Source: JAZDEY01 sp043808325 [NCBI: Candidatus Eiseniibacteriota bacterium] (GTDB lineage Bacteria; Arandabacterota; Arandabacteria; Arandabacterales). Taken from it: a stretch of DNA of 64,000 bases. Under the pieces are notes generated by a model, which worked only from the letters and a program-made list of their open reading frames with translations, was not told where the DNA came from and did not search any database. The stretch covers positions 1-64,000 of the forward strand of contig JAZDEY010000059.1 of NCBI GenBank assembly GCA_043808325.1, given 5' to 3'. A program made the position numbers and the translations under genes. Below, in pieces: positions 7,860-38,008 of this stretch (position 1 is the first letter of the stretch; every line of letters begins with the position of its first letter).

Positions 7860-9359
7860 TTATTGCAGGTCGCCGGCATCGGAGGAGGATCGCGCCTTCA
7901 CGATTGAGGAAAGCATGACGGCAGCATTCCGCAAGTCCCGCCGCCTCATGCCAAGTATAGTGAAGAGAGCCCAACTGAAGCCGGCAGCGACCAGGAGCCT
8001 GGCCGGCGCGCCACCTGCAAGCGGATATCGCGCGGATGCCAGTTCCACGGCGCCGGCCGCCGCAGCGGCCAACGCCAGCGCCCACACCATCGGCTTCACC
8101 CGGAAAGGAATCCTGAATCGAGCTTGCGCCGAGGCCAGCACCGCCGCCATCATCACCAGATTGGTTACCAGCGTGGCCAAGGCGGCGCCCTGCTTGCCCA
8201 GATGAGGAATAAGAGCGATGTTCAGGACCACGTTGAGAACGCCACACACGGCGACAATCAGGGCGAGAATCCGCGTCTTCGCAGTTACGTAGAGGCCCGA
8301 CGCGAAGATCACCGAGAATCCGTAGAACACCAGGGATCCCGCCAACAAGGGAAGAACCTGGGCGGAGCCCTGATAGTCGGCGCTGCCGACGAGCCCGATT
8401 ATCTGCCGCGCGAAGACCGCAAGCAGAAAGCCGATCTCGATCACGAAGAAGGAGAAATACGAGTGAACCCGCGCAAAGAGCTCGCGTCCCTCCGGCTTAG
8501 AGTAGTTGGAGAACAGGAATTGGGGCCAGGCCAGGTTGAGAGCGCTGATCGGGAGCACAAGCACCAGACATATCTCCTGGGCATACTGGTAGAGCCCCAC
8601 CTCGGACAGAGCCTTTGCGGACACCGCAAGCCGCCTCAAGAGGTAAATGTCGGAAGAACATAGCACCCACATGGACAGGTTCATCGGCACCAGCGGACCT
8701 CCGAACTCGAACACCGAGCGGAGGATTGCTCGTGAAAACCTGATGCCGCAGCGCTTGAGCAGCCGGACATAGATCACGATCCCGATCACGAAGGGCGGCA
8801 GGGCCGCGCCCACAATAAGCCCGCCGGCCCCCTTCTTGAGGAAAACCACCAGGGCAATGGACAGCACCAGCGAGAGCCCGCCCTTGAGCAGCGTATAAAG
8901 GAAGTATCTGAAGGATCTGGCGAAGGCCCGCTCGAAAGAGAGCCCGACCTGGAGCATGGCGTTGCCGACCCCGCCTGCGACGCCGACCAGAACCAGAGCG
9001 CCATACTGGGCCGAACCCAGGAGCAAGCGCGAGAGTTGACCGAAGAGCAGACCGCACACCAGGGCAATCGGCAAAGCGAGCACCAGCGATCCCACAAGTA
9101 TCGTTGCCACCAATCTCTTTTTCTCCTCATCGGTCCGAGCCTCGTTTACGAATTTGATCAACGACGAGGAGAGCCCCATCTCGAACATGATCGACAGGAG
9201 CGCGATGAAGATCAGAACAACCGAGGCTTTGCCGTACTCTTCAGCAGGGATGTATCTCGCGATTATGGGAATCAGCGCGGCTCGCGCGATCCCGCCGACT
9301 ATGGTACCCATTCCATAGACGCCGGCGTGCCTGGCGAGTGAGCCTATCTGAGTTGCCAT
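7860..9359 (-). CDS. Wzx-type polysaccharide/oligosaccharide flippase
   Basis: A 499-residue multi-pass inner-membrane protein with about 12-14 hydrophobic segments, of the MOP superfamily (polysaccharide biosynthesis protein). The opening region (VYGMGTIVGGIARAALIPIIA, with a following EYGKASVV) matches the usual N-terminus of these flippases. It would move a polyprenyl-diphosphate-linked oligosaccharide across the membrane. It is the last gene of the 30-kb glycan cluster and its 5' end overlaps the preceding glycosyltransferase by 16 bases, so the two are translated from one transcript. No Wzy polymerase or Wzz regulator is recognisable in the window. Confidence 0.88.
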   Translation of the reverse strand: MATQIGSLARHAGVYGMGTIVGGIARAALIPIIARYIPAEEYGKASVVLIFIALLSIMFEMGLSSSLIKFVNEARTDEEKKRLVATILVGSLVLALPIALVCGLLFGQLSRLLLGSAQYGALVLVGVAGGVGNAMLQVGLSFERAFARSFRYFLYTLLKGGLSLVLSIALVVFLKKGAGGLIVGAALPPFVIGIVIYVRLLKRCGIRFSRAILRSVFEFGGPLVPMNLSMWVLCSSDIYLLRRLAVSAKALSEVGLYQYAQEICLVLVLPISALNLAWPQFLFSNYSKPEGRELFARVHSYFSFFVIEIGFLLAVFARQIIGLVGSADYQGSAQVLPLLAGSLVFYGFSVIFASGLYVTAKTRILALIVAVCGVLNVVLNIALIPHLGKQGAALATLVTNLVMMAAVLASAQARFRIPFRVKPMVWALALAAAAAGAVELASARYPLAGGAPARLLVAAGFSWALFTILGMRRRDLRNAAVMLSSIVKARSSSDAGDLQ

Positions 9360-10477
9360 GCGCTGCCTGTGGCGGGTATAAAGTTGCCCTGGGTGTCAAC
9401 CCAGCCCAACTCGCGATAAGCGGCGTATATGGTCTTTACCACCTTCTCGGCGCTGTGGTACTTCTCGACGAACTTGCGGCCTTCGGCGCCCTTGCGCCTC
9501 CTCAAGTCCCGATCCACAATCACTTGCTCCAGTTTGTCGGGCAGGTTCTCCGGGTTCACCACTATGAAGGGATGGTCGCTCAGAAAGGCCTCGAACTGGG
9601 GCGTGAAGCTGGTAAGTGTGGGAATGCCCATCGATAGAGTCTCGAGGGAGTTCACGCCGTAGCCTGTTCCTCCGATGTCGCCGATCTGATCTATCGCTAT
9701 GTCGCAGGTCTGCTTTATCTCGAGGGCTTCCCGGTGCGGCCTCCCTTCAATCAGCACAAACTCGATGCCATGCTTGCGCTCCATATCCTTACAGGTCTCC
9801 ATTATTCTCGCGGTCCCCTTGAACAGTCTGTTCCGTGGCGCATGGCATATTCGCAGCCTCCGGTTTTCAGTCTGCCGGGGGCTAAAAGCTTCGACCTCAA
9901 AGGGCAGGAAACCGAATCTCAGGTTGGGATGGAGCGCGAGATGGTCAAACTCGGTGGTTATGTTGAGGTCGCTCAGAGCATCGATGTCGGGAATCACCCC
10001 GCGGTCTCGCAGGTCGGTGCCGATATAGTAGCACACAATCCGTTTGCCCATCGCCTTGATCTTCTTTGCTATCCGCGCGTCTCTGAAGAACTCGGTCCCG
10101 CTCTCCAGATGGTAGATGTCGAAATTCAAGAGATCATAGCGTTCGATGGCACTATAGATCCTGGGCGCCGTCAAGGTATCGCGCATCGTAAAGAGGAACG
10201 CTTCGAAGCGGCTTCGCGGCCTCCACTGCCTGATGCGCTCCCTTTCCACGCTCTTCGGGGCATTCCGATGAAGCAGGCTGACAACCCGCTTGAGGGCCAT
10301 GTCGAAGCTGCTGCCCCGCATCATCGGAAGGTTGAGACATATGTCCTCTTCGAACTCGGTCCTGCAACGGGACAGGGTGACCATGCGGCTGTAGTTTCCA
10401 AGCTTGTTGTGGTACTTCACGAAGGTGGACGCCGTACCCACCCAGTTCTGGTCGCACAGGTGGAGGATCCTCAGCAT
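9344..10477 (-). CDS. GT4-like glycosyltransferase (group 1 fold)
   Basis: A 377-residue soluble protein with the look of a GT-B glycosyltransferase. The N-terminus (LRILHLCDQNWVGTAS) is a first Rossmann strand. The C-terminal half has the nucleotide-sugar pocket pattern (ICHAPRNRLFKGT, DQIGDIGGTGYGVNSLETLSMGIPTL) where the E of NSLE corresponds to the EX7E region. It starts directly after the stop of the amidohydrolase gene, with GAGG upstream of the ATG, and overlaps the flippase by 16 bases. It probably adds a sugar to the lipid-linked glycan on the cytoplasmic face. Sugar and linkage cannot be told from sequence. Similarity to typical GT4 members is modest. Confidence 0.72.
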   Translation of the reverse strand: MLRILHLCDQNWVGTASTFVKYHNKLGNYSRMVTLSRCRTEFEEDICLNLPMMRGSSFDMALKRVVSLLHRNAPKSVERERIRQWRPRSRFEAFLFTMRDTLTAPRIYSAIERYDLLNFDIYHLESGTEFFRDARIAKKIKAMGKRIVCYYIGTDLRDRGVIPDIDALSDLNITTEFDHLALHPNLRFGFLPFEVEAFSPRQTENRRLRICHAPRNRLFKGTARIMETCKDMERKHGIEFVLIEGRPHREALEIKQTCDIAIDQIGDIGGTGYGVNSLETLSMGIPTLTSFTPQFEAFLSDHPFIVVNPENLPDKLEQVIVDRDLRRRKGAEGRKFVEKYHSAEKVVKTIYAAYRELGWVDTQGNFIPATGSAWQLR

Positions 10478-11218
10478 CTACTCCACCTCGCCCAGGAGCC
10501 TCAGGATGTTGCCTCCGAGCACCAGGGCCCGTTCTACCGCGGAGATGCGCAGGGCATCAACCAGGCCGAGGTACATCTTGGGATGCCCCAGCGGATAATC
10601 GCTGCCGAAGATCACCTTCTCCGCGCCGAGCTCGGCAATGGCCCGCTCTACGGCCCAATACTCCCGCACCCCTTCGATGCCGAGGTAAGCGTTTGAGAGC
10701 CTGGCAGCCCGGATCGCGTCGATTGTCGCCATCTCCAGCTCGGCGGTATCGCCCCCCATGTGCGACAGAATGACGTTGACACCGGGGTTCTGGCCGGCGG
10801 CCTCCAGCGCGAAGGTGTAGCTGGCCATCTCCTGCCATCTGCCGCAGTGGACCACCACCGGCAGGTGCTCGTCCCGCGCAAACTCAAGGAAAGGTTTGGC
10901 ACGCTGGTCGGTTATCCTTATCCGGTCGCATGATGGGTGGAACTTGAGCCCGTCAATGTCCCCGCGGTGGCTCTTGAGGTAGGTCAGGTCATCGCGTATG
11001 TCGGGATTGATCCAGGGGAAGAACCAGTAGCGCTTGGCCCTGGGCCGGCGCACAAACTCACCCACCAGCAGGTTCTCTCTAAGATCGGTCGTGGTGAGAA
11101 CGGCCCCGTCAAGCCCACATTCCTCAAGGCAGGCCTCGAGCTCCTCAAAGGGAACCCCCCTGCCAAGGAACTTCTGGGGGCTCCACCGGCCCGCGTGGAT
11201 GTGTCCGTCTATGATCAA
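10478..11218 (-). CDS. Amidohydrolase-2-type TIM-barrel metal hydrolase
   Basis: A 246-residue protein of the amidohydrolase superfamily. Visible metal-site motifs are DGHIHAG near the N-terminus (HxH), VVVHCG, ILSHMGG and FGSDYPLG (final Asp), in the order expected for the barrel. It starts with TTG at 11218, overlapping the stop of the acyltransferase by four bases, with GGAG eight bases upstream. Members cleave amide or ester bonds, open rings or decarboxylate small substrates. In this place it may deacylate or trim a sugar precursor, but this is a guess from context. It abuts the downstream glycosyltransferase with no gap, so all three genes are one translational unit. Confidence 0.8.
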   Translation of the reverse strand: MIIDGHIHAGRWSPQKFLGRGVPFEELEACLEECGLDGAVLTTTDLRENLLVGEFVRRPRAKRYWFFPWINPDIRDDLTYLKSHRGDIDGLKFHPSCDRIRITDQRAKPFLEFARDEHLPVVVHCGRWQEMASYTFALEAAGQNPGVNVILSHMGGDTAELEMATIDAIRAARLSNAYLGIEGVREYWAVERAIAELGAEKVIFGSDYPLGHPKMYLGLVDALRISAVERALVLGGNILRLLGEVE

Positions 11219-12177
11219 GCTCGCGTCTCCTTGAAGCTCAAAGCGTAGTGCTCCCGCACGTAGGTGGTCGGCCGGAACTTGGTCTTGAACCGCACCAATC
11301 CCCAGTTGACTTCGTTTCCAAACGACACCGTGCCGAGATCCAAGTATCTGTAACCGGAGCGCTTGAGCAGGCTCAGCGCACCATATAGGGTCGCCTCGGC
11401 GATCCGCAGATCGCCGTGGTCCCGGTCATCACAGATGTAGAATGCGAGCCCTACCCGCGGATTGCAGAGAAAGAGCAGGCAGCCTCCCACAACCTTCTCC
11501 TGGAGCGCCGCCTCCAACAGGATCAACCTGTCGGGGAAAATTCCGAAGAGTTTCTCCAGCTCATCCAAGGTGTGGGTGGGCGTGGTTCCCTTGGCGGTAA
11601 GACTGCGGCCCAGCACCTCGTAGAAACCGCCGAGAGCCGTAGTGGCGTGGACATAAACCCCGCCCTTCTCGGCCCTGCGCAGACTGCGACGGAGCACAGG
11701 ATCAAGATCATCCTTCTCCGGCGAATCGAGATCCACCACCAGACTGGCGTCCCGGGACACCAGCCGGTAGCCCGCCCTCCCCAACACGAAGGCCAGCCCG
11801 TGATCCTGGCTCGACGAATAGCATAGCGGAGGCAGGACGATTTCGATACCCGCATAGCCCATGCCCCTGACATACTCGGTCAGAGCGTCGACAACATCGG
11901 CCATCGGCCTGAGGGCGCGGTCATCCCTGAAGACCGGTCCCCCGAAGGAAGATCCCACGGGTGACCTGAAGAACCGACCCTCGGCCTCGTCGACGTCACC
12001 TCCGGCGACCACGCACACCAGGTCGTTGCCGTCCTTGACGGCAAGATTGAGCCACTTGAATCTTGAGGAAGGATGATAGCTCAGAAATCTCAATGTACTG
12101 AAGATCGTGCCCCCAGGACTCTCCTCCACAAACCTGTCCCACTCCTGGTTGGCGCCCTGGACACGCAGTATCTCCAT
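11215..12177 (-). CDS. FemAB/GNAT-like acyltransferase
   Basis: A 320-residue protein resembling the FemAB-like branch of the GNAT fold (Acetyltransf_6 type). The pattern includes WLNLAVKDGNDLVCVVAGG early, LRRSLRRAEKGGV in the centre, and the late block ATLYGALSLLKRSGYRYLDLG. The start is ATG 12177 (AGGA upstream); the open frame continues 76 codons further, but those lie over the next gene and read as out-of-frame sequence. Directly upstream are a DegT aminotransferase and an epimerase, so the natural suggestion is N-acylation of the amino sugar made by them. Transfer of an amino acid from a tRNA, as in true FemAB, is an alternative. Confidence 0.7.
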   Translation of the reverse strand: MEILRVQGANQEWDRFVEESPGGTIFSTLRFLSYHPSSRFKWLNLAVKDGNDLVCVVAGGDVDEAEGRFFRSPVGSSFGGPVFRDDRALRPMADVVDALTEYVRGMGYAGIEIVLPPLCYSSSQDHGLAFVLGRAGYRLVSRDASLVVDLDSPEKDDLDPVLRRSLRRAEKGGVYVHATTALGGFYEVLGRSLTAKGTTPTHTLDELEKLFGIFPDRLILLEAALQEKVVGGCLLFLCNPRVGLAFYICDDRDHGDLRIAEATLYGALSLLKRSGYRYLDLGTVSFGNEVNWGLVRFKTKFRPTTYVREHYALSFKETRA

Positions 12178-12196
12178 AGTCTTATTTCCTGCTGAT

Positions 12197-13312
12197 TCAG
12201 CGTCCTGCGGCTGCCTGCCTGAGACACTTCTTGAGACTCGCCGCCACCTGCGCCACGGTCTCTTCCCCCATAGACGGATAGATCGGCAGGGCAAGCGAAT
12301 GCTTGAAAGCATGGCTCGATTGGGGAAGGCTGCCGGGCCTGTAGCCATACTTGTCCCGGTAGAAGGGCTGGAGATGGATTGCGTAGGTGCCGATTGCCGT
12401 TTCAACGCCGTCGGCCTTCATCGCGGCGATCAAGCGATCCCTGTCTATCTTAGAGTGAACCAGCACCACATAGGATTGATAGGTGTGGAAATAGCCGCTG
12501 GGTTCGACCGGAGAGGCAATCTCGTCGACCTCGGCGAGCAGCCTGTCATAGATCCGAGCGACCCTTCGCCGCTTCTCAACCAAATCGGCGATTTGCTCCA
12601 TCTGCACGATTCCCAGGCAGGCTTCGATCTCATTCATCCTGAGATTGTATCCAGCGAGCACGAACTCCGTTATCCCTCGTGTGGTATCGATGCCGTGATT
12701 GCGAAGTCTCCTGACCTGATTGGCCCAGGCTTCGTTGTCGGTGAGCACCATGCCGCCCTCTCCGGTGGTGACAATCTTCCTGGGATGAAAACTGATTACC
12801 GAAGCCTCCCCGAAAGAGCCGCACCTCCTGCCGCCTGCCGCGGACCCGAGGGCGCAGGCCGAATCCTCAATAACCGTCAACCGGCCCCGGCTTGCGACGC
12901 TTCCGATAGCGGCCATGTCGGCAGCAAGGCCAAAGAGATCGACAGGCATGACGGCTCTGGTCTTCGGTGATAGCTTGGCCCTAACCTCTTCCACATCCAG
13001 ATTGAAGGTCGCAAGATCGATGTCCGCGAGCACCGGCACTGCCCCACATGCGACCACCGCATTCGCAGTCGCGGGAAAAGTGAAATCGGGCAGGATCACT
13101 TCGTCCCCCTCCCCGATGCCCAAAGCGGTCAGCGCACACTGGATCGCCGAGGTTCCAGAGCTGACCGCAACCGCGTGCCCACGTCCTACGTAGGAGGCGA
13201 CCATCGTTTCGAACTGCAGGACGCGCTTTCCCTGGACAAGGAAACCGTCTTGGAGAACTGCCTTTACCGCCTCGATGGCTCCTTCGATCTCAGGCCGCGT
13301 GAGTCTGATCAT
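12197..13312 (-). CDS. DegT/DnrJ/EryC1/StrS family sugar aminotransferase
   Basis: A 371-residue PLP enzyme that puts an amino group on a nucleotide-linked keto sugar. The PLP lysine is K179 in SFHPRKIVTTGEGG, the cofactor aspartate is D150 in VIEDSACALG, and SSGTSAIQCAL is the phosphate-binding region. The start is ATG 13312, where the family N-terminus (IRLTRPEIEGAIEAV) begins; longer frames give no homology. It overlaps the epimerase gene by 23 bases. With the neighbouring epimerase and acyltransferase it forms a small amino-sugar module. The exact sugar position (C3 or C4) cannot be read from the sequence. Confidence 0.92.
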   Translation of the reverse strand: MIRLTRPEIEGAIEAVKAVLQDGFLVQGKRVLQFETMVASYVGRGHAVAVSSGTSAIQCALTALGIGEGDEVILPDFTFPATANAVVACGAVPVLADIDLATFNLDVEEVRAKLSPKTRAVMPVDLFGLAADMAAIGSVASRGRLTVIEDSACALGSAAGGRRCGSFGEASVISFHPRKIVTTGEGGMVLTDNEAWANQVRRLRNHGIDTTRGITEFVLAGYNLRMNEIEACLGIVQMEQIADLVEKRRRVARIYDRLLAEVDEIASPVEPSGYFHTYQSYVVLVHSKIDRDRLIAAMKADGVETAIGTYAIHLQPFYRDKYGYRPGSLPQSSHAFKHSLALPIYPSMGEETVAQVAASLKKCLRQAAAGR

Positions 13313-14264
13313 TGATTTGCTTCCTGTACCACTCGATCGTCCGGGCCAAGCCATCCTCCAGGTCGACCTTCGGCCAGTAATCAAGAAGGGTCTGAGCTTT
13401 CCTTATACTGGGGATGCGCAGCTCCACATCGACATAGTCCTTGTAACCGTAGACGATCTTGGAATTGGAGTTCGCGAGCCTGCGCACCACCTGTGCCAGG
13501 TTGGCTACCGTGACAGTCGCTCTGGGGTTTCCGATGTTGAAGACGTGCCCGACCGCTTCTTCCTTCTCAAGGCAAAGCAGGGCCCCGTCAACCATGTCGT
13601 CGACGTAGCACCAGGCTCTGATCTGGTTACCGTCTCCGTGGATCACCAGATCCTTATCCTGAAGGGCATCGACCACGAAGCTGTGGATCGCCCCCACCCC
13701 GACCTGCTGCGGGCCGTAAACATTGAAGGGTCTAATGGTCACCGTGGCAAGGCCATGCTCCTTGTGATAGGAACTGACAAGATGTTCGGCGGCAAGTTTG
13801 GAGACTGCGTAGGTCCATCGCGACTCTCCCACCACGCCAAGGGCTGTCGCGTTATGCTCTTCAGCCATGTAGACATGGCTTCCAAAAACCTCGCTGGTGG
13901 AGAAGTCCACGAACCTTCGGACACCGGCCTTGACCGCAGCATCAAGCGCATTCAGGGTCCCGAAAAGATTGACCTTCATGGTCAAAGTCGGCATCTCCAT
14001 AACGGTATCGACGCCGGCAATCGCGGCCAGGTGGATCAATATGTCGCAGCCCCCCGCCGCAGCAAAGAGATCATCCCGGTTGAGTACGTCCCCTTCAATG
14101 ATGCGGACATTGGGAAAGGAGCCGATGCTGGTATATTTGAGAGCATTCCGGTGAAGATTATCGTAAACAACAATCCGGTTCTTCGCGGCGAGCCTCTTGA
14201 CAAGCTGCGTGCCGATAAAGCCCGCCCCGCCCGTCAACAGTATCGTCCTGTTCTCCAGCAGCAT
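13290..14264 (-). CDS. NAD-dependent sugar epimerase/dehydratase (extended SDR)
   Basis: A 324-residue extended short-chain dehydrogenase. The NAD-binding TGGAGFIG is at residues 11-18, an active-site serine region STSEVFG at about 122-128, and the catalytic pair Y152/K156 in YAVSK. Family members interconvert or dehydrate nucleotide sugars such as UDP-glucose or UDP-GlcNAc. The seven-base gap after the propeller gene and the 23-base overlap with the aminotransferase put it in one operon. It probably makes the 4-keto or epimerised substrate for the DegT enzyme. Confidence 0.9.
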   Translation of the reverse strand: MLLENRTILLTGGAGFIGTQLVKRLAAKNRIVVYDNLHRNALKYTSIGSFPNVRIIEGDVLNRDDLFAAAGGCDILIHLAAIAGVDTVMEMPTLTMKVNLFGTLNALDAAVKAGVRRFVDFSTSEVFGSHVYMAEEHNATALGVVGESRWTYAVSKLAAEHLVSSYHKEHGLATVTIRPFNVYGPQQVGVGAIHSFVVDALQDKDLVIHGDGNQIRAWCYVDDMVDGALLCLEKEEAVGHVFNIGNPRATVTVANLAQVVRRLANSNSKIVYGYKDYVDVELRIPSIRKAQTLLDYWPKVDLEDGLARTIEWYRKQINDQTHAA

Positions 14265-14270
14265 CGCCCC

Positions 14271-16481: not shown

Positions 16482-16504
16482 GCCCTACCTCCCGGAATTT
16501 AGCT

Positions 16505-18499: not shown

Positions 18500-18554
18500 A
18501 ACCCTCGTCCGTGGAGCCATCCCGCCACATGGCAGGAAAGACACCCCGCCTTGC

Positions 18555-19271
18555 CTACAGCCGGCCCAAGAGCGCCTCGAGCCTCAGCCACCAGACCTTC
18601 CACATCGCTTCCCAGATTATCTTCTTCGACATCTTTGAGGCCCCGGAGTGCCTGTCAACGAAGACAATCGGTATCTCGGCTATGCTGAAGTGCTTGCGCC
18701 ACGCCCGAAACGTCATCTCAACCTGAAAGCAATAGCCGTCCGAAATCACGTCGTCGAGACTGATGGCCTCGAGCACCTTCCGCCTGAAGCACTTGAAGCC
18801 CGCGGTGGCATCACGCACCGGCATCCCCGTGATTATCATGGTGTAGAGATTGGCGAAGTAACTCAAGAGCAGTCTCGACATCGGCCAGTTGACGACGTTG
18901 ACACCCTTAATGTAACGGGAGCCGATCGCGACGTCATGATCCTTGATCGCCTCCACGAGCTGCGGAACGTACTGCGGATCATGTGAGAGATCCGCATCCA
19001 TTTGGACCACCACTTCCGCCCCTCCTGCCAGTACGTTTTTGAACCCGGTGATATAGGCGGAGCCAAGTCCGAGCTTTCGGGGCCGCCGAATCAGGCGCAC
19101 CCTGGGGTTCTCCCTGCCGATCCTCTCCACCCAGTCGCCGGTGCCGTCGGGCGAGCTGTCATCGACCACCAGGATGTCGATGTCCGGACTCAGATCCAGA
19201 AGCCGCGCTATCACGCACTGGATATTCTCAAGCTCATTGTAGGTAGGGATCACAATGCTGATCTTAGCCAT
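18555..19271 (-). CDS. Polyprenol-phosphate mannose synthase-like GT2 (DPM1-like)
   Basis: A 238-residue soluble GT2 that transfers a sugar, classically mannose from GDP-mannose, to a polyprenyl phosphate on the cytoplasmic face. Motifs: ISIVIPTYNELENI at the N-terminus, VDDSSPDGT, and the metal-binding QMDADLSHDP; RDATAGFKCFRR is the DPM1 signature region. No C-terminal membrane helices are present, as in DPM1 itself. The start is ATG 19271 (GGAG 8-9 bases upstream), overlapping the YfhO gene by eight bases. The product would be the sugar donor for GT-C enzymes in this cluster. Confidence 0.88.
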   Translation of the reverse strand: MAKISIVIPTYNELENIQCVIARLLDLSPDIDILVVDDSSPDGTGDWVERIGRENPRVRLIRRPRKLGLGSAYITGFKNVLAGGAEVVVQMDADLSHDPQYVPQLVEAIKDHDVAIGSRYIKGVNVVNWPMSRLLLSYFANLYTMIITGMPVRDATAGFKCFRRKVLEAISLDDVISDGYCFQVEMTFRAWRKHFSIAEIPIVFVDRHSGASKMSKKIIWEAMWKVWWLRLEALLGRL

Positions 19272-29505: not shown

Positions 29506-29843
29506 TCTCTTGATCTCTCCTCGGATAGAAGCGTGATTGTCTGTGCCAGATCCTTCACTTGCTCACTCAACTCCGATATGCGTGTGGTCATCCAGAGCGA
29601 TGTGAATATCAGGAACATAAGAGCGCCGAAGAACAGGACCGAAACCGGGTAGGTCGCTCCTATCAATCTGGTGAAGAGCACCAGGGGTTTTACCCAGATC
29701 GCGATCACAAAGATCGCGAGGCCCGCCAAGATCCATAGGAAGGAATCGGTCTCACGCAACTTCCGGTTTCGCACAAGCCAGATGACGTAGACCACGAAGA
29801 ACACACTGATCACCAGAGACATGATCCTCACCTGTAGAATCAC
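29502..29843 (-). CDS. DUF2304 small membrane protein
   Basis: A 113-residue protein with three hydrophobic segments and a C-terminal coiled-coil-like tail (TRISELSEQVKDLAQTI). The pattern RNRKLRETDSFLWILAGL matches DUF2304, a family commonly encoded next to DPM1-like GT2 proteins and thought to anchor or assist them. Here it overlaps such a GT2 gene by four bases on its upstream side and a GT39-like gene by four bases on its downstream side, fitting a membrane adaptor between donor synthesis and transfer. Confidence 0.82.
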   Translation of the reverse strand: MILQVRIMSLVISVFFVVYVIWLVRNRKLRETDSFLWILAGLAIFVIAIWVKPLVLFTRLIGATYPVSVLFFGALMFLIFTSLWMTTRISELSEQVKDLAQTITLLSEERSRE

Positions 29844-30568: not shown

Positions 30569-30584
30569 CCGGCCTTCCTGTGTG

Positions 30585-31622
30585 CTACCTTTCCGGCGCA
30601 ATACCGGGCTCCGGCGTGGGTTCGGTTCCCGTCTCGGCTGCTTGCGGTCCCCCCGACCCGGCGTGCACCGGCGCATGCGGTCTTCTGTAAAGTAATCTCG
30701 ATAGACCGGCAAGCACAAGGACCGAGAACCAGATGGCCAACCTCAGCGAGACCAGGTACGGCACGACGTCGGCCTGATCGACCCTGATCTTCATCAAGAT
30801 CAGCGACCACAACCAGTCTACAATGCCTATGCCCCCGGGCGTAACTGCAAAAACAGCTGCGGCCTGCGCTCCGGGAGTAAAGAGCAGCATATCGGCGGTG
30901 CGGCCTATCATTCCCATTGCCAGGGCTATCGAAGCGAAGCGGAATGACGTGCACAGAAATTTCATGCCGCTCAGGAGATAGAGCTTGGGCGTGACCGATG
31001 GAAAGCTGCTGGCCACCAGGAACTTGCTCTCGGCATCGGCGTCGACCCTGCTGCGGATGCCGGGGATCCTGCAGACGGCCTTGAACAGGAAGTGAAATAT
31101 CAGAACAACAAAATCCATGCTCTGGCGGCCCCAGAGGACGAAACACAGGTAGCCCGCGGCGAAGGCGAGACCGTAAAGGACCAGACCCAGTCCCGGCTGG
31201 ATCACACCCAAAATGAAAAGCAGCGACGGCACAAAAAGAAACGCGGCCACGACCACATCGAAGGTGCGGTCAAGGTAGACCGAATACGAGGCCTTCCCTA
31301 TGGGTATGGCGTGGTCGAACTTGAGCGACATAGTGCGTGCCGCAAAGTCACCGAAGTCCATGGGAACAACAAGCCCGAGAACACGGCCGATCATGAAGTA
31401 GTGCAAGAGCGACCCGAAGTGTGTCGCGCGCGCCTCGCCCATCGAATGGAGACAGACTCGCCACTTAAGAGCCGACGACAGAGCGATGCCCGCGGTACAC
31501 AGGAAGCAAACCACGAGAGGCATAAGATGGAGCGAACCGATCTTGCCGAGGTCGTGGCGCCCCCAAAAGAGGAGCGCCGCCATCAGGACTATCCCCAGCA
31601 CCCACAGCCGGCGATTCCTCAC
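30585..31622 (-). CDS. LPG-synthase-TM family flippase-like membrane protein
   Basis: A 345-residue protein with about eight hydrophobic segments. The family blocks are HYFMIGRVLGLVVPMDFGDF (about 75-95) and VTPGGIGIVDWLWSL (about 265-280). The start is GTG 31622 with GGGAGG upstream. The C-terminus is a short Pro/Thr-rich cytosolic tail. No lysyl-transfer domain is attached. It is probably a translocator-type protein for a lipid or lipid-linked sugar, encoded between the DPM1-like GT2 and the phosphatase-superfamily gene. Confidence 0.8.
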   Translation of the reverse strand: MRNRRLWVLGIVLMAALLFWGRHDLGKIGSLHLMPLVVCFLCTAGIALSSALKWRVCLHSMGEARATHFGSLLHYFMIGRVLGLVVPMDFGDFAARTMSLKFDHAIPIGKASYSVYLDRTFDVVVAAFLFVPSLLFILGVIQPGLGLVLYGLAFAAGYLCFVLWGRQSMDFVVLIFHFLFKAVCRIPGIRSRVDADAESKFLVASSFPSVTPKLYLLSGMKFLCTSFRFASIALAMGMIGRTADMLLFTPGAQAAAVFAVTPGGIGIVDWLWSLILMKIRVDQADVVPYLVSLRLAIWFSVLVLAGLSRLLYRRPHAPVHAGSGGPQAAETGTEPTPEPGIAPER

Positions 31623-31633
31623 TAAGCCTCCCG

Positions 31634-33301
31634 TCAGGAAATATAGCCCAAGCCCTTCAGCCTCTGTTTGATGCTCTCATCATCGGTGGTCTGCCGTTGC
31701 CCCCGGGGGGGGACGGGAGTGTCTTCCATCTTGAAGTAGGCCGGGGGCCGCCGCGCTATCTCGGCCTGATCGATAATGCCGACAGGCAGTTTGCCATCGA
31801 GGCCTTCGGGTATGGGAAGACCCATCAGGTAAAGCACCAGCGGGACCGTGTCCAGTACTGTGAGGTCCTTAACCTCGGCTCCCCGCTTGATTCCGGGCCC
31901 CTTGGCGATCAGTATGCCGTCCATCCTGTGTTGTGCCGATATCGCATGTGAGGCCGCCTCCACCACCTTGTTTGAAGAGAACTCAAAATCCCCAAAGACC
32001 GCCTGGGTAGGCTCGCTCGGAAGAAAGTAGAGGTCCGGCAGCTCGCCCAGGTACTTACCCTTGTAGATCTCCTCCCTCATCACAACCTGCTTCATGAGAG
32101 GCTTGCCGGTCCCGGGATGCCGCACCCCAACCAGCATGCTCCTCAGGGAATCCCGCGTGCGCTCATATTCTTCTTGCGGGACCACGCCCGAGGGCTCCCG
32201 GCCCTTCAGGTTTATGAAGACGCCACCGTAGACCCCACCACTCATGGCATAAGCGGTCGATCGCTCCCAGTCGATATCCGAGAATGAAAAGAAGAACCGG
32301 CGCAAGAGACCGTAGCCCTTGCTGGTCCACCTGAGACCCATCCTCACTTTGCCGAGCTTCGCCGCAGCCCCCACCCGGTATACATTGAGAGGGGTGAGCC
32401 CGGCCCTGAAAAACGCGTACTTGAGCCAGGACCGAAGACTCCGTCTCACCTTAAGCACGCCCTGCTTAAGAAAGAGATTATTGGCATGGATGAACTCGTG
32501 GAGCGGACCCGCGCCGTGATCCGACAACACGATCACGGGGACATCCTCTCCCACCGACTCGGTAACGTCCGCGAGCATCGTATCGATCGTCTTATAGAAG
32601 TCAACTATCCGCCGGCCGTACTTTTTCGCGTCCTTTGCCCGGTAGCGGGGATGCGCCGGATCGATCAGATGCCACAGGGCATGCTGAAGGAAATCCGTCT
32701 CGCTGAAGACCTGCATAGCAAACGCCCAATCCACCTGCTTCAGAAGCTCTCTCAAGACACGCCCCTTGATCTTGAGAATAGCGGTCACTTCATCCAGGAA
32801 GGCGTCGGCCCGCCCCGGAACATAGGCTTGATCGGGGACTATCCTGTAGGACGGCTCGATCGTTCTTATTGTGTCGAAGAATACCGGCGGATAAGTGCAC
32901 TCGGTACTCCCCAAGGGCGTCGTTAGCCCGGTCACCATGTAGCCGTTGACTTCCCGTGGCGGGTAGGTCATCGGCACATTGAGCACCAGGACCTTGCCGC
33001 CGAAATGCCCGACGATATCCCAGATCGCAGGTGCTCTCAAAGAAGATCCGTTGAGAAAGGCCAGATCATAAGAGGTCTCGGCCCTGACGATCAGATCGGC
33101 GATCCCGTGGTTGCTTGGATCGAGGCCGGTTACGATCGACGACCAGGCAGGCCCGGTGCCCGGTGGGACAACGGTGCGGAGCCTGCCCCAAACACCGGCA
33201 TCCATAAGCGCCTTGAGAGCGGGCATCTCGCCTTTCTCAATCAGGGGCAAGAGCAGATCAAAAGTGCCCCCGTCGAGCCCTATCACGAGTGCCTTGCGCA
33301 A
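31634..33301 (-). CDS. Alkaline-phosphatase-superfamily phosphodiesterase/phosphatase
   Basis: A 555-residue member of the type I phosphodiesterase/nucleotide pyrophosphatase group. The metal-binding Asp10 is in VIGLDGGTFD, the probable nucleophile is T49 in PGTGPAW, and the second metal site is in VIVLSDHGAG. No signal peptide or strong membrane helix is seen, so it may work in the cytoplasm, perhaps releasing sugar phosphates or recycling nucleotide or lipid phosphates. The first codon appears to be TTG 33301, 15 bases after the preceding gene; the ribosome site is poor and GTG 33286 is an alternative. Substrate unknown. Confidence 0.83.
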   Translation of the reverse strand: MRKALVIGLDGGTFDLLLPLIEKGEMPALKALMDAGVWGRLRTVVPPGTGPAWSSIVTGLDPSNHGIADLIVRAETSYDLAFLNGSSLRAPAIWDIVGHFGGKVLVLNVPMTYPPREVNGYMVTGLTTPLGSTECTYPPVFFDTIRTIEPSYRIVPDQAYVPGRADAFLDEVTAILKIKGRVLRELLKQVDWAFAMQVFSETDFLQHALWHLIDPAHPRYRAKDAKKYGRRIVDFYKTIDTMLADVTESVGEDVPVIVLSDHGAGPLHEFIHANNLFLKQGVLKVRRSLRSWLKYAFFRAGLTPLNVYRVGAAAKLGKVRMGLRWTSKGYGLLRRFFFSFSDIDWERSTAYAMSGGVYGGVFINLKGREPSGVVPQEEYERTRDSLRSMLVGVRHPGTGKPLMKQVVMREEIYKGKYLGELPDLYFLPSEPTQAVFGDFEFSSNKVVEAASHAISAQHRMDGILIAKGPGIKRGAEVKDLTVLDTVPLVLYLMGLPIPEGLDGKLPVGIIDQAEIARRPPAYFKMEDTPVPPRGQRQTTDDESIKQRLKGLGYIS

Positions 33302-33315
33302 AGGGGTAATTGTAG

Positions 33316-35658
33316 CTACTCTCCTCTTACCTTCTTCTCCAGGGACTGCAGTAGGTTCGCGGCAGACTTGTCGTTGGGATGGAGGTCAAGCCAGCGCCTG
33401 ACGATATCAGCCGCCTTTACGTGGGCTCCTTGCTCTTCGTAGAATGAGGCAAGCATCGAAAATCCGTCGGGATTGTCGGGGAGTGCGTTGATGAGGCGCA
33501 TCAGGATGCCCTCGGCACCTTGCTGATTGTTGGCCCTCCGGTAGACCCTGAAAAGCTGCAGATAGATGTTGACGTTCCTGGGCTCCGCGGCAAGGAACGA
33601 GTACGCCAGACTCTCAGCCTTGGCAATCTGGCCGGCATACCCGTAAGTAGCCACGGCAATCTCCTTGTAGCCTTCAAAGCCCGGGGAGACTAGAATCGCC
33701 CGTTCGAGCTCGCGCATCGCATTATCGAACTCGGCATTCTGAAGGTAATAGACGCAAAGTTTAAGGTGGGCAGCGGCGTAATTGGTCACCAGCCGCTGGG
33801 TGTTTGTGTCCTTATAGACCTTGGTGTCGTACACGTACCTGGAGGCAAAGTCCGTAGAATCCGCGCCGCCCCATTTTCGGACATCGGTGAACTGGGGAGC
33901 CGAGGCCGGCCCGCCGGCCGCCGGCAGAAGCAGTCCTCGATACTTGTAAACGCTGTAAAGGTTGTATAGCGTCCGCGTGAGATCGATCGACTCCGAGACT
34001 TCCTTGGGTTCGTACCTGAACGCAAGACCCTCCAGTACAAGATGCGGATCATAGCCCATATAGTCCGCCACCGTTACCGCAAAGTAGATCGGCCGGTTGC
34101 CCTGGTTCCGGTCGATGATGTCCTTGGCGGCGATGTCTTTCACCATCACGATCTTGCCGTCTCGGTCCCTGAAGGGCCGCAGCTCGTTGACTTCCTTGTC
34201 GGTGAAGCTGATGTCCAACTTGGGCTCGATATGCTTGAGCTGCCAGATGTACCACGGCGTATTGAGCAGACTCAGATTGACAACACGCACATCCTTCCGG
34301 AAGTTCTTGACCTCCTGGATGAACCACAGCGGGAAAGTATCGTTGTCCCCGTTGGTGAATATCAGGCCGTTAGGGGCAACCGTGGCCAGCATGTTGTAGC
34401 CGTAATCGTGGGCGTTATAGTCCCCCCGCCGGTCATGGGTCCTGAAGTTCACGAAGTAGGATGAGAAGGTAAAAGCGATCATCACCGCCAGCGCGACCGG
34501 CGTGAGCCACCGCGACCACTTGGTGGAGGCGGTAAGATCGGCCAGATAAGCAAAGGCTACCCCGATCCAGGGGCAGAAGAAAATGAAACCGTGGGCATAG
34601 AAGTAATCCCGATCTCTGACCTCGTGGTCGGTGAAATTCATGTAGACTATGAGGAACAGAGTCAGCATCAGGAAGAGGCCCGCAATCAGTATGAAGGTTC
34701 TCCTGTGCTTGAGGTAGTGAATCACCGCGCCGAATGCGCCTGCGAGCATCAGGAGGATCGTCCAGCTGCCTCCCGCGCCGGTCCACTGCTCACTGAAATA
34801 TCGCCAGAACATGCCGAACTGGAACGACCAGGGGGCCTGCCTCACAAAAATCGTCATCGGCTTGTACTGCTTCCTCAAGATGCAATCCTTGAACGCCGCC
34901 CATCTCTGGGGATCAGCCTCGTCTATCCTGGGGTTAAGCGACGATCGAATGGGCAGGTAGAGATGATCGCTGAGTCCCAGAATTATGGCAAAGACCGCCA
35001 GCACGACCAGCCTGGCGTCGGTAAAGATCCGCCAGTCCACCACGAGAGCGAATACGACGAACGCGGGAAACACCAGAGCTGTCCCAAGATGAAGCCCGAC
35101 GCTGATCGCGATCAGAAAACAGATCAGGACCAGGCTGTTCCGGCTGCCGGGCTCGCGATAGCGCTCGCCCCACCTGACCATCAACCACGTGATGAAAGTC
35201 ATGATGAACGCTGAAGGCGCATAGACTTCGGCCTCTATGGCGTCGGACCAATGGCTGCTGGAGAAAGCGGCCGCAAGCGCCGCACAGGCCGCTGACGAGT
35301 ACATGATCATCCGGTCTCGCGGTCCTTTGGGTGTTCCTCTCCACTGGACCAGGATCTTCACGGTGATCAGGTAAATGAAGAGAGCCGTGAGAGCTCCCGT
35401 GATGGTGGACATCAGGTTGACGCTAAAGGCCTTCTCCTGGAAAGGCAGCATCGTGAAAAGATGCGCCACAAGCTGGTAAAGAGGGGTGCCGGGCGGATGC
35501 GGGACACCCAGAATGTAGGCGGTTGCTATGAACTCTCCGCAGTCCCAGAACGCAAGCGTTGAACCTATGGTAGTGAGATAGCAGGAGAAAGCCGTGACGA
35601 AAACCGCGGCCCCGGCAATCATGTTCCATCTGCGATGGCTAGCTTCCATCTCCGTCAC
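33316..35658 (-). CDS. DUF2723 membrane protein with TPR-like C-terminus
   Basis: A 780-residue multi-pass protein. The DUF2723 signature FWDCGEFIATAYILGVPHPPG lies near residues 38-58 and is the GT-C first loop with its acidic pair. Related eukaryotic TMEM260 is a protein O-mannosyltransferase, and other DUF2723 proteins are linked to sugar transfer. About ten hydrophobic segments precede an outer soluble region and a set of tetratricopeptide-like repeats (about 640-775, AMRELERAILVSP). The start GTG 35658 has GGAGG eight bases upstream. It overlaps the preceding gene by 20 bases. Acceptor unknown; protein glycosylation is possible. Confidence 0.83.
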   Translation of the reverse strand: MTEMEASHRRWNMIAGAAVFVTAFSCYLTTIGSTLAFWDCGEFIATAYILGVPHPPGTPLYQLVAHLFTMLPFQEKAFSVNLMSTITGALTALFIYLITVKILVQWRGTPKGPRDRMIMYSSAACAALAAAFSSSHWSDAIEAEVYAPSAFIMTFITWLMVRWGERYREPGSRNSLVLICFLIAISVGLHLGTALVFPAFVVFALVVDWRIFTDARLVVLAVFAIILGLSDHLYLPIRSSLNPRIDEADPQRWAAFKDCILRKQYKPMTIFVRQAPWSFQFGMFWRYFSEQWTGAGGSWTILLMLAGAFGAVIHYLKHRRTFILIAGLFLMLTLFLIVYMNFTDHEVRDRDYFYAHGFIFFCPWIGVAFAYLADLTASTKWSRWLTPVALAVMIAFTFSSYFVNFRTHDRRGDYNAHDYGYNMLATVAPNGLIFTNGDNDTFPLWFIQEVKNFRKDVRVVNLSLLNTPWYIWQLKHIEPKLDISFTDKEVNELRPFRDRDGKIVMVKDIAAKDIIDRNQGNRPIYFAVTVADYMGYDPHLVLEGLAFRYEPKEVSESIDLTRTLYNLYSVYKYRGLLLPAAGGPASAPQFTDVRKWGGADSTDFASRYVYDTKVYKDTNTQRLVTNYAAAHLKLCVYYLQNAEFDNAMRELERAILVSPGFEGYKEIAVATYGYAGQIAKAESLAYSFLAAEPRNVNIYLQLFRVYRRANNQQGAEGILMRLINALPDNPDGFSMLASFYEEQGAHVKAADIVRRWLDLHPNDKSAANLLQSLEKKVRGE

Positions 35659-36664
35659 CGAGCTTCCCTCCTCGAAACTCCCGCTCGATCTGGGCCGGCG
35701 CCAGACCCCGAATCAGATATGTCAGGCCGCCGGCCAGGCTCACTATGACTCCGACCAAGTAAGCCAGCAGTCCCATCACCAAGGCCTGTTCCCGTGTCAC
35801 ACTCGGAACTGCCGTGCAGAAAAAGAGTATCCCCAACCCTTCCCGTACGCCCAGTCCGCCTATGGATATGGGCAACGCTATGAAGATAGCAATAACCGGC
35901 ACAAAAAGGAAGAAGTAGATTGCCGGAATCGGAAGGCCCATCGCCATCGAGACCTGGTAGTGCACCAGGGTTCTCAGTGCCTGGACCACGAGCGATACAA
36001 GGAGCACCCACACAAGTGTGCTGCCGCTCTTGCTATATAGGTAAAAGGACTCGTAGATCCGCTTGAACCTGTCGTGAAGGCCCCGGATCAGTATCGGCCG
36101 GGCCAGGTTGCGGAGCGTACGGGCAAGCCGCCTCGAGAAGAGCACCAGGAACGCCAGGGCCAGAATACCCATAAAGGCGAGCACGATAACCAGACTTCCC
36201 AGTCCGAATCTCCGCTCGAGGCCGAGGGTCCGGTAGCTGGCCGCAACATAGATGCCCGCGGGCACAGCCAGGAGCGCGAGGGTTACCATGCCTACAAGCC
36301 TGTCGGTCACGGTTGCAGCTATGGCCTGGTCCGGCTGGCCTGAGTCCTTGTAGACATCATAGATCCTTACCACATCACCCCCGATGTTGGCCGGCAGGAA
36401 ATTGTTGAAGAAGGCCCCCACGAAGTAGAAGGAGAGCGTCCTGCGGAACCGGATGTGAATGCCCTGCAGCGCGAGGAGCATCGCCCATTGGACGTTTCCC
36501 AGCACCAGGGACGCCGCGAAAGTCACCAACGAGAGCACCAGCCAGGGCCAGCGTACGGTCAACAGGGCCTGGGCGGTCTGCCTCAGATCCAACTTGGTAA
36601 GAATCAACAGGATCAGCGCTGCGCTGATCGCGATCCGGGCATATCGCGTCTGGAAGTATTTCAC
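35639..36664 (-). CDS. LPG-synthase-TM family flippase-like membrane protein
   Basis: A membrane protein of about 341 residues with eight or so hydrophobic segments. Clear family blocks are FYFVGAFFNNFLPANIGGDV and LPISIGGLGVREGLGIL. The start is uncertain: GTG 36664 begins just before the first hydrophobic segment, while the strong GGAAGGAGG lies 17 bases ahead of it and would suit a CTG at 36673; a TTG at 36757 is also in frame. It heads the long overlapping cluster after a 231-base gap, so a promoter could lie upstream, although none is convincing. Confidence 0.8.
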   Translation of the reverse strand: MKYFQTRYARIAISAALILLILTKLDLRQTAQALLTVRWPWLVLSLVTFAASLVLGNVQWAMLLALQGIHIRFRRTLSFYFVGAFFNNFLPANIGGDVVRIYDVYKDSGQPDQAIAATVTDRLVGMVTLALLAVPAGIYVAASYRTLGLERRFGLGSLVIVLAFMGILALAFLVLFSRRLARTLRNLARPILIRGLHDRFKRIYESFYLYSKSGSTLVWVLLVSLVVQALRTLVHYQVSMAMGLPIPAIYFFLFVPVIAIFIALPISIGGLGVREGLGILFFCTAVPSVTREQALVMGLLAYLVGVIVSLAGGLTYLIRGLAPAQIEREFRGGKLGDGDGS

Positions 36665-36895
36665 GGCTCTCAGGTGACCTGCCTCCTTCCAATCCCCAAT
36701 CCCGAAGGGTATCCGGGGCAACCACACCCGCCTATGGCGGGCACCGACCGTCGGCAAGCATACAGTTTATGGGTGCGATAGTCACACTTATTTTCCACAG
36801 CCGGGGCCGAGCACAGTTCCCACCGGGCGCGCCGCGCCTGCAACCGGGGGAACGAGGGTTACCTGTCTCGCGACGTGCGGGGACGGAAGGTAGAA
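36665..36895. other. Intergenic gap with two hairpins inside the cluster
   Basis: The gap divides the GT4 gene from the large overlapping gene block. It holds an imperfect inverted repeat GTTCCC...GGGAAC with flanking CCGG/CCGG arms (36816-36853) and a perfect small hairpin CCCGCC-TAT-GGCGGG (36727-36741). Neither is followed by a T run on the minus strand, so they are not standard intrinsic terminators. No gene is seen. Confidence 0.5.
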
Positions 36896-38008
36896 CTACT
36901 CGTTCTTCTGGAGGCGATCTATAATGCCGAGTATTGCTTCAGCCGAGTGGTCCCAATTGAACTTCTGCGACCAGGTAACGGCGGCGTCACTCAATCTCTC
37001 GCGCAGCGCCTGATCGGCCAGGATCTCGGCGATCCGATCCGCAAAGCCCCGGACATCACCATGGGCAACCAGGAAGCCTGTCTTGCCGTCAAGGATCGCG
37101 TCCCTCAAACCAGGAACGTCGCTGGCGACCACCGGTGTGCCGCAGGCATTGGCCTCGGTCACGGTTACCCCCCAGCCTTCCTTGCTCGAGGGATTGACCA
37201 CGACGTGAGCCTTTCTCAGAATCTCGATCTTCCGGTCCTCGCTCACGAATCCCGGGAAATCGACGCGGTCGGCGATACCCATGCTCTTGGCCTGACGCAC
37301 AAGCGCCGGCAAGTAATCCCCCGAACCGACTATGACAAGGCGAGCCGTGGGGAACCTCTCGAAAACCAGCTTGGCAGCCGATAGGACCAGGTTGACGCAC
37401 TTGTAGCGCTTGATTCTGCCCAGATAGGCAATCAGCGGCTCGGGTGATTTCGGCAGGTCGCCCGGAGTATACCGGGTGTGATCCACCGCGTTATGAACCA
37501 CCTCGATATTGGCGGCCGGTATGCCGCGTCGCACGAGTTCCTGCCTGGTGCTTTCGGAGACTGCGACAAACCTGGTCTTCCGGTACACCAGGGGGATCAG
37601 GGCTTCGCTCAGATAAACATAAGCCGCCAGAGGAAATGCGGTCTCAAGGAATATGGTCCCGGCAAAAAGGTGATGGGAGATTGCGAGGATCGGCTTCCTG
37701 ATGTAGAGCGGCGTATAGAAGGGAATCTTGTTGATGTCATCGACAACCAGGTCGAAGCCGTGATCCCTGATCAGAGTCTTGGATGCGGACCTCACGTGGA
37801 AATTGAACGAGTACTTGCCGCCCGATCGCACGATCCTTACGCCATCGATCGTCTCCTCGGCAGGCGCCCCCTCAAACCGGGAAGCAAGCACCGTCACCTG
37901 GTGCCCTCGAGCTGCGATCCGTTTGGAGATCTCGTGGAGATGGACCTCGGCTCCTCCGGCTTCGGGGTTCCTGATGTCTCTCCAATTGATCATGAGAATC
38001 TTGAGCAT
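36896..38008 (-). CDS. GT4 family glycosyltransferase
   Basis: A 370-residue GT-B enzyme. The N-terminus LKILMINWRDIRNPEAGGAEVH contains the acceptor loop. The C-terminal half has YLGRIKRYKCVNLVL and the EX7E site in EGWGVTVTEANACGTPVVA. It follows the metallophosphoesterase gene with a two-base gap, so it shares its transcript with the riboflavin-nusB genes upstream. It probably works on the same glycan as the genes downstream; alternatively it makes a glycolipid on its own. Confidence 0.9.
   Translation of the reverse strand: MLKILMINWRDIRNPEAGGAEVHLHEISKRIAARGHQVTVLASRFEGAPAEETIDGVRIVRSGGKYSFNFHVRSASKTLIRDHGFDLVVDDINKIPFYTPLYIRKPILAISHHLFAGTIFLETAFPLAAYVYLSEALIPLVYRKTRFVAVSESTRQELVRRGIPAANIEVVHNAVDHTRYTPGDLPKSPEPLIAYLGRIKRYKCVNLVLSAAKLVFERFPTARLVIVGSGDYLPALVRQAKSMGIADRVDFPGFVSEDRKIEILRKAHVVVNPSSKEGWGVTVTEANACGTPVVASDVPGLRDAILDGKTGFLVAHGDVRGFADRIAEILADQALRERLSDAAVTWSQKFNWDHSAEAILGIIDRLQKNE

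What the first reader, a model, noticed from the sequence alone, without database searches (positions are those of the whole stretch)
7860..38008. Candidate extracytoplasmic glycosylation system built on polyprenyl-phosphate single-sugar donors
Three DPM1/GtrB-like GT2 genes (18555, 26259, 29840) are each coupled by overlap or short spacing to multi-pass GT-C-type or YfhO genes (19264, 24734, 27223, with DUF2723 at 33316), and three LPG-synthase-TM proteins (21579, 30585, 35639) lie between them. Seen: the motifs, overlaps and order. Known: DPM1-type enzymes make donors that GT-C enzymes use outside the membrane. Inferred: the LPG-synthase-TM proteins flip these donors, and the set forms one pathway separate from, or added to, the Wzx route ending at 7860. 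No Wzy, Wzz or O-antigen ligase was recognised, so an ordinary O-antigen locus does not explain it.
Basis: partly seen in the sequence, partly recalled or inferred. Interest (0 to 1): 0.65.

Follow-up and report, generated by a model that had tools for sequence, protein, structure and literature searches.

The report
Bacterial outer-face sugar-attachment gene cluster
An uncultured bacterium carries a conserved gene block that appears to load single sugars onto a membrane lipid, flip them outward and attach them to surface molecules, using an enzyme related to the animal protein-mannosylating enzyme TMEM260 and probable flipping proteins of the MprF type instead of the usual GtrA type.

Summary
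In detail: all named genes are present, on one strand, with overlapping ends. Seven of eight close relatives keep the order on every contig read, and one 344-kb contig (G005) keeps it from selA past Wzx.

Refinements: "DUF2723" gene 33316 is a TMEM260-type GT-C with a TPR tail (PF11028 E 1e-48; aligns to solved TMEM260 9RQL, E 4e-16, DxGE and HPPG kept). 18555 is DPM1-like, 26259 ArnC-like, 29840+29502 GacI-GacJ-like. LPG-TM 35639 models onto the MprF flippase domain (Z 20-21; next fold 5.1).

New is the pairing: a same-strand LPG_synthase_TM gene lies within 1.5 kb of the TMEM260 gene in 20 of 58 loci (chance about 0.1). The linked LPG-TM proteins do not form one clade (AU p 1e-52). GtrA is missing in 8 of 8 close relatives. 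In genomes taken by kinship the linkage is weaker (3 of 15), and housekeeping genes are conserved neighbours too.

Best reading: a periplasmic polyprenyl-phosphate-sugar system in which UPF0104/LPG-TM proteins stand in for GtrA. Flipping, sugars and acceptors are inferred; the flippase idea itself dates from 2015. "Separate from Wzx" is not shown.

The parts
36896..38008 (-). GT4 glycosyltransferase, first gene of the block
   Evidence: Pfam 146.5 bits; conserved next to LPG-TM/TMEM260 in relatives
35639..36757 (-). LPG_synthase_TM / UPF0104 protein, putative flippase paired with TMEM260
   Evidence: Pfam 141.6 bits; model matches MprF, Z 19.9-20.8
33316..35658 (-). TMEM260-type GT-C (PF11028) with TPR tail
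31634..33301 (-). Alkaline-phosphatase-superfamily phosphodiesterase, role unknown
   Evidence: PF01663 123.6 bits; acidic, His and Thr positions invariant in 10 sequences
30585..31622 (-). second LPG_synthase_TM protein
   Evidence: Pfam 59.1 bits
29840..30718 (-). DPM-type GT2, GacI-like position before DUF2304; probable start about 30568
29502..29843 (-). DUF2304, GacJ-family membrane partner of the GT2
   Evidence: Pfam 77.0 bits; GacJ link in PMC8327497
27223..29505 (-). PMT_2 GT-C with TPR tail
   Evidence: Pfam
26259..27341 (-). ArnC-like GT2; probable start about 27230
   Evidence: ArnC 4.5e-55
24734..26299 (-). PMT_2 GT-C next to the ArnC-like gene
   Evidence: Pfam; Asp54 invariant in 5 sequences
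23619..24908 (-). GT4 glycosyltransferase
   Evidence: Pfam
22493..23656 (-). WecB-type UDP-GlcNAc 2-epimerase
   Evidence: TIGR00236 475.7 bits, cut-off 210
21579..22496 (-). third, divergent LPG_synthase_TM protein
   Evidence: 27.8 bits, below cut-off; counterparts above it
19264..21582 (-). YfhO-family GT-C
   Evidence: Pfam; Asp43 invariant in 6 sequences
18555..19325 (-). DPM1-like GT2; probable start about 19271
   Evidence: 5MLZ 5.6e-40
16505..18544 (-). GT2 fused to a WcaJ-like region lacking the usual catalytic stretch
7860..14264 (-). Wzx, GT, amidohydrolase, GNAT, DegT and GalE-type genes, same conserved block
1752..4019 (+). PMT_2 GT-C with TPR tail, opposite strand, conserved at the block's end in G005

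Best explanation
The block encodes a periplasmic glycosylation system fed by single-sugar polyprenyl-phosphate donors. Three GT2 enzymes (18555 DPM1-like; 26259 ArnC-like; 29840 with its DUF2304 partner) charge polyprenyl phosphate with sugars inside the cell. UPF0104/LPG_synthase_TM proteins (35639, 30585, 21579) carry the donors to the outer leaflet in place of GtrA. GT-C enzymes (TMEM260-type 33316; TPR-tailed 27223; PMT_2 24734; YfhO 19264) transfer the sugars to acceptors outside. The TMEM260-type enzyme most likely puts mannose on folded domains of exported proteins. Shown: gene families, fold of 33316 and 35639, order, conservation, linkage. Inferred: flipping, the sugars, protein acceptors, and which donor feeds which GT-C.
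For: Donor synthases nearest to solved DPM synthase, ArnC and sll0501. TMEM260-type enzyme: Pfam, 9RQL alignment with DxGE and HPPG, 28-sequence invariants, OST/PMT/ArnT fold at Z 24-26. 35639 has the MprF flippase fold, Z 19.9-20.8 against 5.1 for the next; MprF is reported to scramble many lipids (PMC11980842, abstract and outline). LPG-TM within 1.5 kb of TMEM260 in 20 of 58 loci; all 30 LPG-TM genes found within 5 kb (29 of 80 loci) on the TMEM260 strand; chance for the 20 about 0.1. Several arrangements; one clade rejected for the linked proteins. GtrA family absent in 8 of 8 close relatives and 19 of 21 genomes. A second locus in G001, G005 and G010 repeats the kit: phosphodiesterase, DPM-like GT2, LPG-TM, YfhO, PMT_2. 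Precedents: CsbB-GtcA-YfhO (PMC11898649, passages) and the Pgf system that modifies surface proteins (PMC5856776, passages).
Against: No biochemistry. In genomes taken by kinship only 3 of 15 with both families are linked. Marinimicrobia, Chlorobiaceae and Bacteroidales loci show no LPG-TM within 5 kb. Housekeeping genes are conserved neighbours too (RecG in 20 of 80 loci, valyl-tRNA synthetase in 16), so part of the adjacency may be inherited gene order. The neighbouring cytosolic enzyme is often a GT4. G010 lacks the 21579 counterpart. No GT2-LPG-TM fusion was found. GtrA is not the only donor flippase type; others were not searched, and the genomes may be incomplete.
Confidence: 0.55

Rival explanations
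1. The LPG-TM proteins flip a glycolipid (a glycosylated phospholipid or diacylglycerol made by the neighbouring GT4), not a polyprenyl-phosphate sugar; the GT-C enzymes extend that lipid outside.
For: A GT4 lies within 1.5 kb of TMEM260 in 14 of 58 loci and between TMEM260 and LPG-TM in Zixibacteria. GT4 GpgS with the UPF0104 protein GpgF makes and possibly moves glucosaminyl-phosphatidylglycerol (PMC12713373, passages).
Against: The LPG-TM/TMEM260 pair persists without a GT4 in Calditrichota loci such as L023, L024, L037 and L038 and beside a GT2 in L054. 36896 scores only 42.4 bits against the GlcN-PG synthase model, cut-off 480. The TPR tail suggests a protein acceptor (inference).
Confidence: 0.18
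2. An ordinary surface-polysaccharide locus: the glycan is flipped by Wzx, and the GT-C enzymes only decorate it; polymerase and ligase lie elsewhere in the genome.
For: Wzx, GTs and nucleotide-sugar genes belong to the same conserved block; Wzy_C-family genes exist in 7 of 8 relatives.
Against: The block is fixed across relatives, unlike variable O-antigen loci; no Wzy_C gene on a locus contig; the only initiating-enzyme-like domain lacks its catalytic stretch in 7 of 7 orthologues; the core GT4/LPG-TM/TMEM260 set occurs without the Wzx part in other phyla within the 10-kb flanks seen.
Confidence: 0.17
3. The LPG-TM/TMEM260 adjacency is inherited gene order without a functional link.
For: Housekeeping genes are conserved neighbours as well; RibBA lies near the set both in the window group and in Zixibacteria.
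Against: Order and partners vary between phyla, two LPG-TM lineages are involved, and a second locus repeats LPG-TM with GT-C and GT2 genes.
Confidence: 0.08

Closest known systems
Animal TMEM260 (GT117) O-mannosyltransferase
   Same: PF11028 domain, DxGE and HPPG motifs, GT-C core aligned over residues 11-477 to 9RQL; C-terminal TPR (in the animal enzyme recalled)
   Different: bacterial, inside a sugar-donor gene block; donor and acceptor unknown
Three-component polyprenyl-phosphate systems (CsbB-GtcA-YfhO; GtrABC)
   Same: GT2 donor synthase plus GT-C transferase, YfhO included
   Different: no GtrA-family gene in 8 of 8 close relatives; LPG_synthase_TM genes instead; several donor and transferase genes in one block
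GacI-GacJ of group A streptococci
   Same: GT2 with a DUF2304 partner (29840, 29502)
   Different: followed by a TPR-tailed PMT_2 enzyme and preceded by an LPG-TM gene
Archaeal arCOG00899 (UPF0104) glycosylation neighbourhoods and AglD
   Same: UPF0104 beside an AglD-like GT and a PMT/STT3-like enzyme; flippase role predicted in 2015 (PMC5898192, passages)
   Different: bacterial; the partner is TMEM260 or YfhO; no GT2 fusion found
MprF flippase domain
   Same: fold (Z 19.9-20.8)
   Different: no lysyl-transferase domain; no PDB sequence match at E 1
Pgf system of Streptococcus mutans
   Same: glycosyltransferase plus two membrane proteins modifying surface proteins (PMC5856776, passages); 19264 matches PgfM2 weakly
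   Different: 25.6 bits against a cut-off of 1500; many more genes here

Membership tests
TMEM260 / GT117 | PF11028 over the curated cut-off | tested here: met
   165.9 bits against 24.2
TMEM260 / GT117 | GT-C fold with DxGE motif near the N-terminus | tested here: met
TMEM260 / GT117 | C-terminal TPR | tested here: met
   TPR_19 40.4 bits; helical repeats 618-779 in the model
TMEM260 / GT117 | transfers mannose from a lipid phosphate to Ig-like protein domains | not testable with these tools
   needs biochemistry
GtrA-type three-component system | polyprenyl-phosphate-sugar synthase (GT2) | tested here: met
   by nearest solved relatives
GtrA-type three-component system | GT-C transferase | tested here: met
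GtrA-type three-component system | GtrA-family (PF04138) flippase | tested here: not met
   none among the 40 window proteins scanned; 0 of 8 close relatives; own genome not held
LPG_synthase_TM / UPF0104 | PF03706 over the curated cut-off | tested here: met
   35639 and 30585 met; 21579 not met (27.8 of 33.4)
LPG_synthase_TM / UPF0104 | MprF flippase fold | tested here: met
   35639 only
LPG_synthase_TM / UPF0104 | flips a polyprenyl-phosphate sugar | not testable with these tools
   needs a transport assay
GacI/GacJ pair | DUF2304 gene beside a GT2 donor synthase | tested here: met
Wzx/Wzy O-antigen locus | Wzy polymerase and ligase at the locus | tested here: not met
   in relatives only on other contigs
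Wzx/Wzy O-antigen locus | initiating phosphoglycosyl transferase with its catalytic pair at the locus | tested here: not met
   stretch absent in 7 of 7 orthologues of 16505; position of the Asp-Glu pair recalled
STT3/PglB oligosaccharyltransferase | PF02516 gene over cut-off in the genome | tested here: not met
   0 of 8 relatives over cut-off, one weak partial match in G004; own genome not held

The most novel reading that the evidence does not exclude
UPF0104/LPG_synthase_TM proteins are the missing flippases (scramblases) of polyprenyl-phosphate single sugars in FCB-group bacteria, each working with a GT-C partner, and the TMEM260-type partner is a bacterial protein O-mannosyltransferase acting on exported proteins with folded beta-sandwich domains like those it serves in animals. 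The pairing was set up from more than one LPG-TM lineage.
Probability: 0.35. Interest if true: 0.8.

Novelty: new variant of a known kind. Interest (0 to 1): 0.55.

Why it matters
Which protein flips dolichol- or polyprenyl-phosphate mannose is, as far as I recall, unsettled in most organisms. A gene pair (LPG-TM plus TMEM260) found side by side in several bacterial phyla gives a small, named candidate for a direct transport assay. It would also give bacterial models for TMEM260, whose mutation causes a human syndrome (title of a reference seen in PMC11292533), and would suggest a role for part of a very large, mostly uncharacterised membrane family.

Tried and rejected
GT2-LPG-TM fusion as direct proof: four PF03706 frames of 586-624 aa in G055, G101, G105 and G113 were read; none has a DPM match, and the extra part follows the LPG-TM part. 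The longer frames in G018, G035 and G050 gave no fusion either.

PDB sequence search with LPG-TM, single and as a profile: nothing at E 1; only the fold comparison links it to MprF. The TMEM260 profile search was swamped by TPR proteins, so the GT-C part was searched alone. 9RQL was not in the rows shown by the fold searches, whose library ends in April 2026.

The 28-of-31 genome linkage count is not used as a frequency. Of its 23 genomes outside the window group, 17 were known to be linked when chosen. Of the 6 chosen as unlinked at the fetched locus, 3 proved linked at another TMEM260 copy (G104, G115, G120) and 3 not (G103, G106, G111). The figures used are 20 of 58 loci (from the best 80 of 590 confirmed stretches, 22 of the 80 dropped for short flanks) and 3 of 15 genomes.

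Trees: 76 LPG-TM rows, 75 used, 59 (16 dropped: long branches, near duplicates and others; L119_71 relabelled as 'other' because it is the counterpart of 30585). The linked label was set before the first tree, but rows were dropped after it, so the AU p-value should be read with that. L129, 'other' by the 1.6-kb rule, lies about 2 kb from its TMEM260 and groups with linked rows.

Neighbour clustering also brought up housekeeping genes, which weakens linkage as evidence and is told in the Against line.

Literature, all in an open-licence library: DUF2723 0 papers; TMEM260 with mannosyltransferase and bacteri 4 papers, of which PMC11292533 was opened by passages, which describe no bacterial homologue; GT117 2 papers, listing only; UPF0104/COG0392/YbhN/AglD2/PF03706 19 papers, three opened by passages or abstract. 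That the LPG-TM/TMEM260 pairing was not seen in print rests on these searches alone.

The organism could not be named: no whole genome is held for the window. The nearest named record is JALGZP010000069.1 (MAG: bacterium isolate M3-30_Bin_374), 65% identical in the TMEM260-type protein.
Full report
Observation. They lie on the minus strand between the NusB and riboflavin genes (38717-42854) and a PPIase gene (4047-5750). The three GT2 genes differ in kind. 18555 is nearest to dolichol-phosphate mannose synthase 5MLZ (5.6e-40). 26259 is nearest to ArnC (4.5e-55) and then sll0501. 29840 is a more distant DPM-type enzyme (1.3e-13) whose end overlaps a DUF2304 gene by four bases. DUF2304 is the family of GacJ, the membrane helper of the Und-P-GlcNAc synthase GacI (PMC8327497, one passage). 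The DUF2723 gene 33316 belongs to the family that Pfam now calls TMEM260-like.

Conservation. The nearest relatives were found with 33316. In G005 one contig of 344 kb carries the counterparts of the window from selA to past the Wzx gene in the same order. In G001, G004, G006, G007, G008 and G009 the contigs are short, but each one read keeps the order. Most counterparts are about 42 to 82% identical. G010 (45% in the TMEM260-type protein) keeps the core in order on two contigs, has a stretch with YfhO matches between LPG-TM and GT4, and lacks a 21579 counterpart at the expected place. This is a fixed locus. In G001, G005 and G010 a second locus carries phosphodiesterase, DPM-like GT2, LPG-TM, YfhO and PMT_2 genes together.

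TMEM260. The GT-C part (residues 11-477) aligns with solved TMEM260 9RQL at E 4e-16, with D39-x-G-E42 and HPPG kept. These positions are invariant or nearly so in 28 sequences. The model (pLDDT 87.5) matches oligosaccharyltransferases, Pmt enzymes and ArnT at Z 24-26 (Foldseek). Human TMEM260 serves IPT domains, an Ig-like fold (PMC11292533, passages).

LPG-TM. The model of 35639 (pLDDT 87.2) matches six MprF entries at Z 19.9-20.8 over 300-307 residues; the next fold scores 5.1. MprF of P. aeruginosa is reported as a promiscuous lipid scramblase (PMC11980842, abstract and outline). A 2015 study proposed that all COG0392 members are likely flippases, with roles in archaeal glycosylation (PMC5898192, passages). 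So the flippase idea is not new; the bacterial TMEM260 partner is what the data here add.

Linkage. Among 80 loci fetched by TMEM260 similarity (the best 80 of 590), 58 have at least 4 kb on both sides. An LPG-TM gene lies within 1.5 kb in 20 of 58, a DPM-like GT2 in 22, either in 36, a GT4 in 14. Chance for the LPG-TM figure is about 0.1 locus (at 4.2 copies per 3.9 Mb). The arrangement varies: LPG-TM upstream (window group, L028, L030), directly downstream (KSB1 and Calditrichota loci), after a GT4 (Zixibacteria, L043, L068) or after a GT2 (L054, L063). A tree of 59 LPG-TM proteins rejects one clade for the TMEM260-linked ones (AU p 1.4e-52; first tree). The pairing therefore involves at least two LPG-TM lineages, by two origins or by one origin with losses.

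Results against. In genomes taken by kinship only (G011-G050) 17 of 40 have TMEM260-type genes, 15 have both families, and 3 are linked within 6 kb on one strand (G016, G019, G035; expected 0.27, P 0.003). Marinimicrobia, Chlorobiaceae and Bacteroidales loci have no LPG-TM within 5 kb. Housekeeping genes such as RecG (20 of 80 loci) and valyl-tRNA synthetase (16) are conserved neighbours too, so inherited gene order contributes. No GT2-LPG-TM fusion was found.

Flippase gap. PF04138 (GtrA) is absent in 8 of 8 close relatives and in 19 of 21 genomes searched, while PF03706 was present in 31 of 31 and in 30 of the 40 kinship genomes. Genomes may be incomplete, and other flippase types were not searched.

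Wzx side. Wzx and the nucleotide-sugar genes belong to the same conserved block. 16505 fuses a GT2 to a WcaJ-like region whose catalytic stretch is missing in 7 of 7 orthologues (position of the Asp-Glu pair recalled), so an active initiator probably lies elsewhere. Wzy_C genes occur in 7 of 8 relatives, on other contigs; STT3 is not found over its cut-off in 8 relatives. Whether the Wzx glycan and the single-sugar donors meet on one acceptor cannot be told.

Mechanism. Most likely each GT2 loads polyprenyl phosphate, an LPG-TM protein carries the donor across the membrane, and a GT-C partner uses it outside. Sets suggested by gene contact are 35639/33316, 30585/29840/29502/27223, 26259/24734 and 21579/19264/18555. 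Families, two folds, order and linkage are shown; sugar, acceptor, direction and pairing are inferred. SprA_N, a T9SS family, is found in 8 of 8 relatives, so exported proteins with beta-sandwich ends are plausible acceptors, but none was tested.

Verdict. A real, conserved locus of a known general kind with an unusual flippase candidate: a new variant. It works like a three-component system but is not filed as a GtrA-type one, since the GtrA feature was tested and not met.

Noticed in passing
window 16505-18544: GT2 fused to a WcaJ-type region; the phosphoglycosyl-transferase part lacks the catalytic Asp-Glu stretch in all 7 orthologues compared: a conserved, probably inactive or repurposed domain.
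   Followed up: partly
window 31634-33301; also L152, L154, L158: A phosphodiesterase of the alkaline-phosphatase superfamily with invariant likely metal-site residues occurs in both the main and the second glycosylation locus; it might recycle or trim a lipid-phosphate sugar.
   Followed up: partly
L152 2025-15732, L154 1690-14820, L158 3764-11838: Second locus in relatives with phosphodiesterase, DPM-like GT2, YfhO, LPG-TM and PMT_2 genes.
   Followed up: partly
L145 6657-10831: Four tandem matches to the window protein 597-1583 in G005; that protein has no Pfam match.
   Followed up: no
L185-L188: LPG_synthase_TM with an extra C-terminal region of about 250 aa in four genomes; its family was not determined.
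   Followed up: no
window 10478-12405: An amidohydrolase and a GNAT-type gene inside a sugar locus, conserved in G005 and G006.
   Followed up: no
window 5851-7809: C-terminal end with weak T9SS sorting-domain similarity, below the cut-off; SprA_N family present in 8 of 8 relatives.
   Followed up: partly
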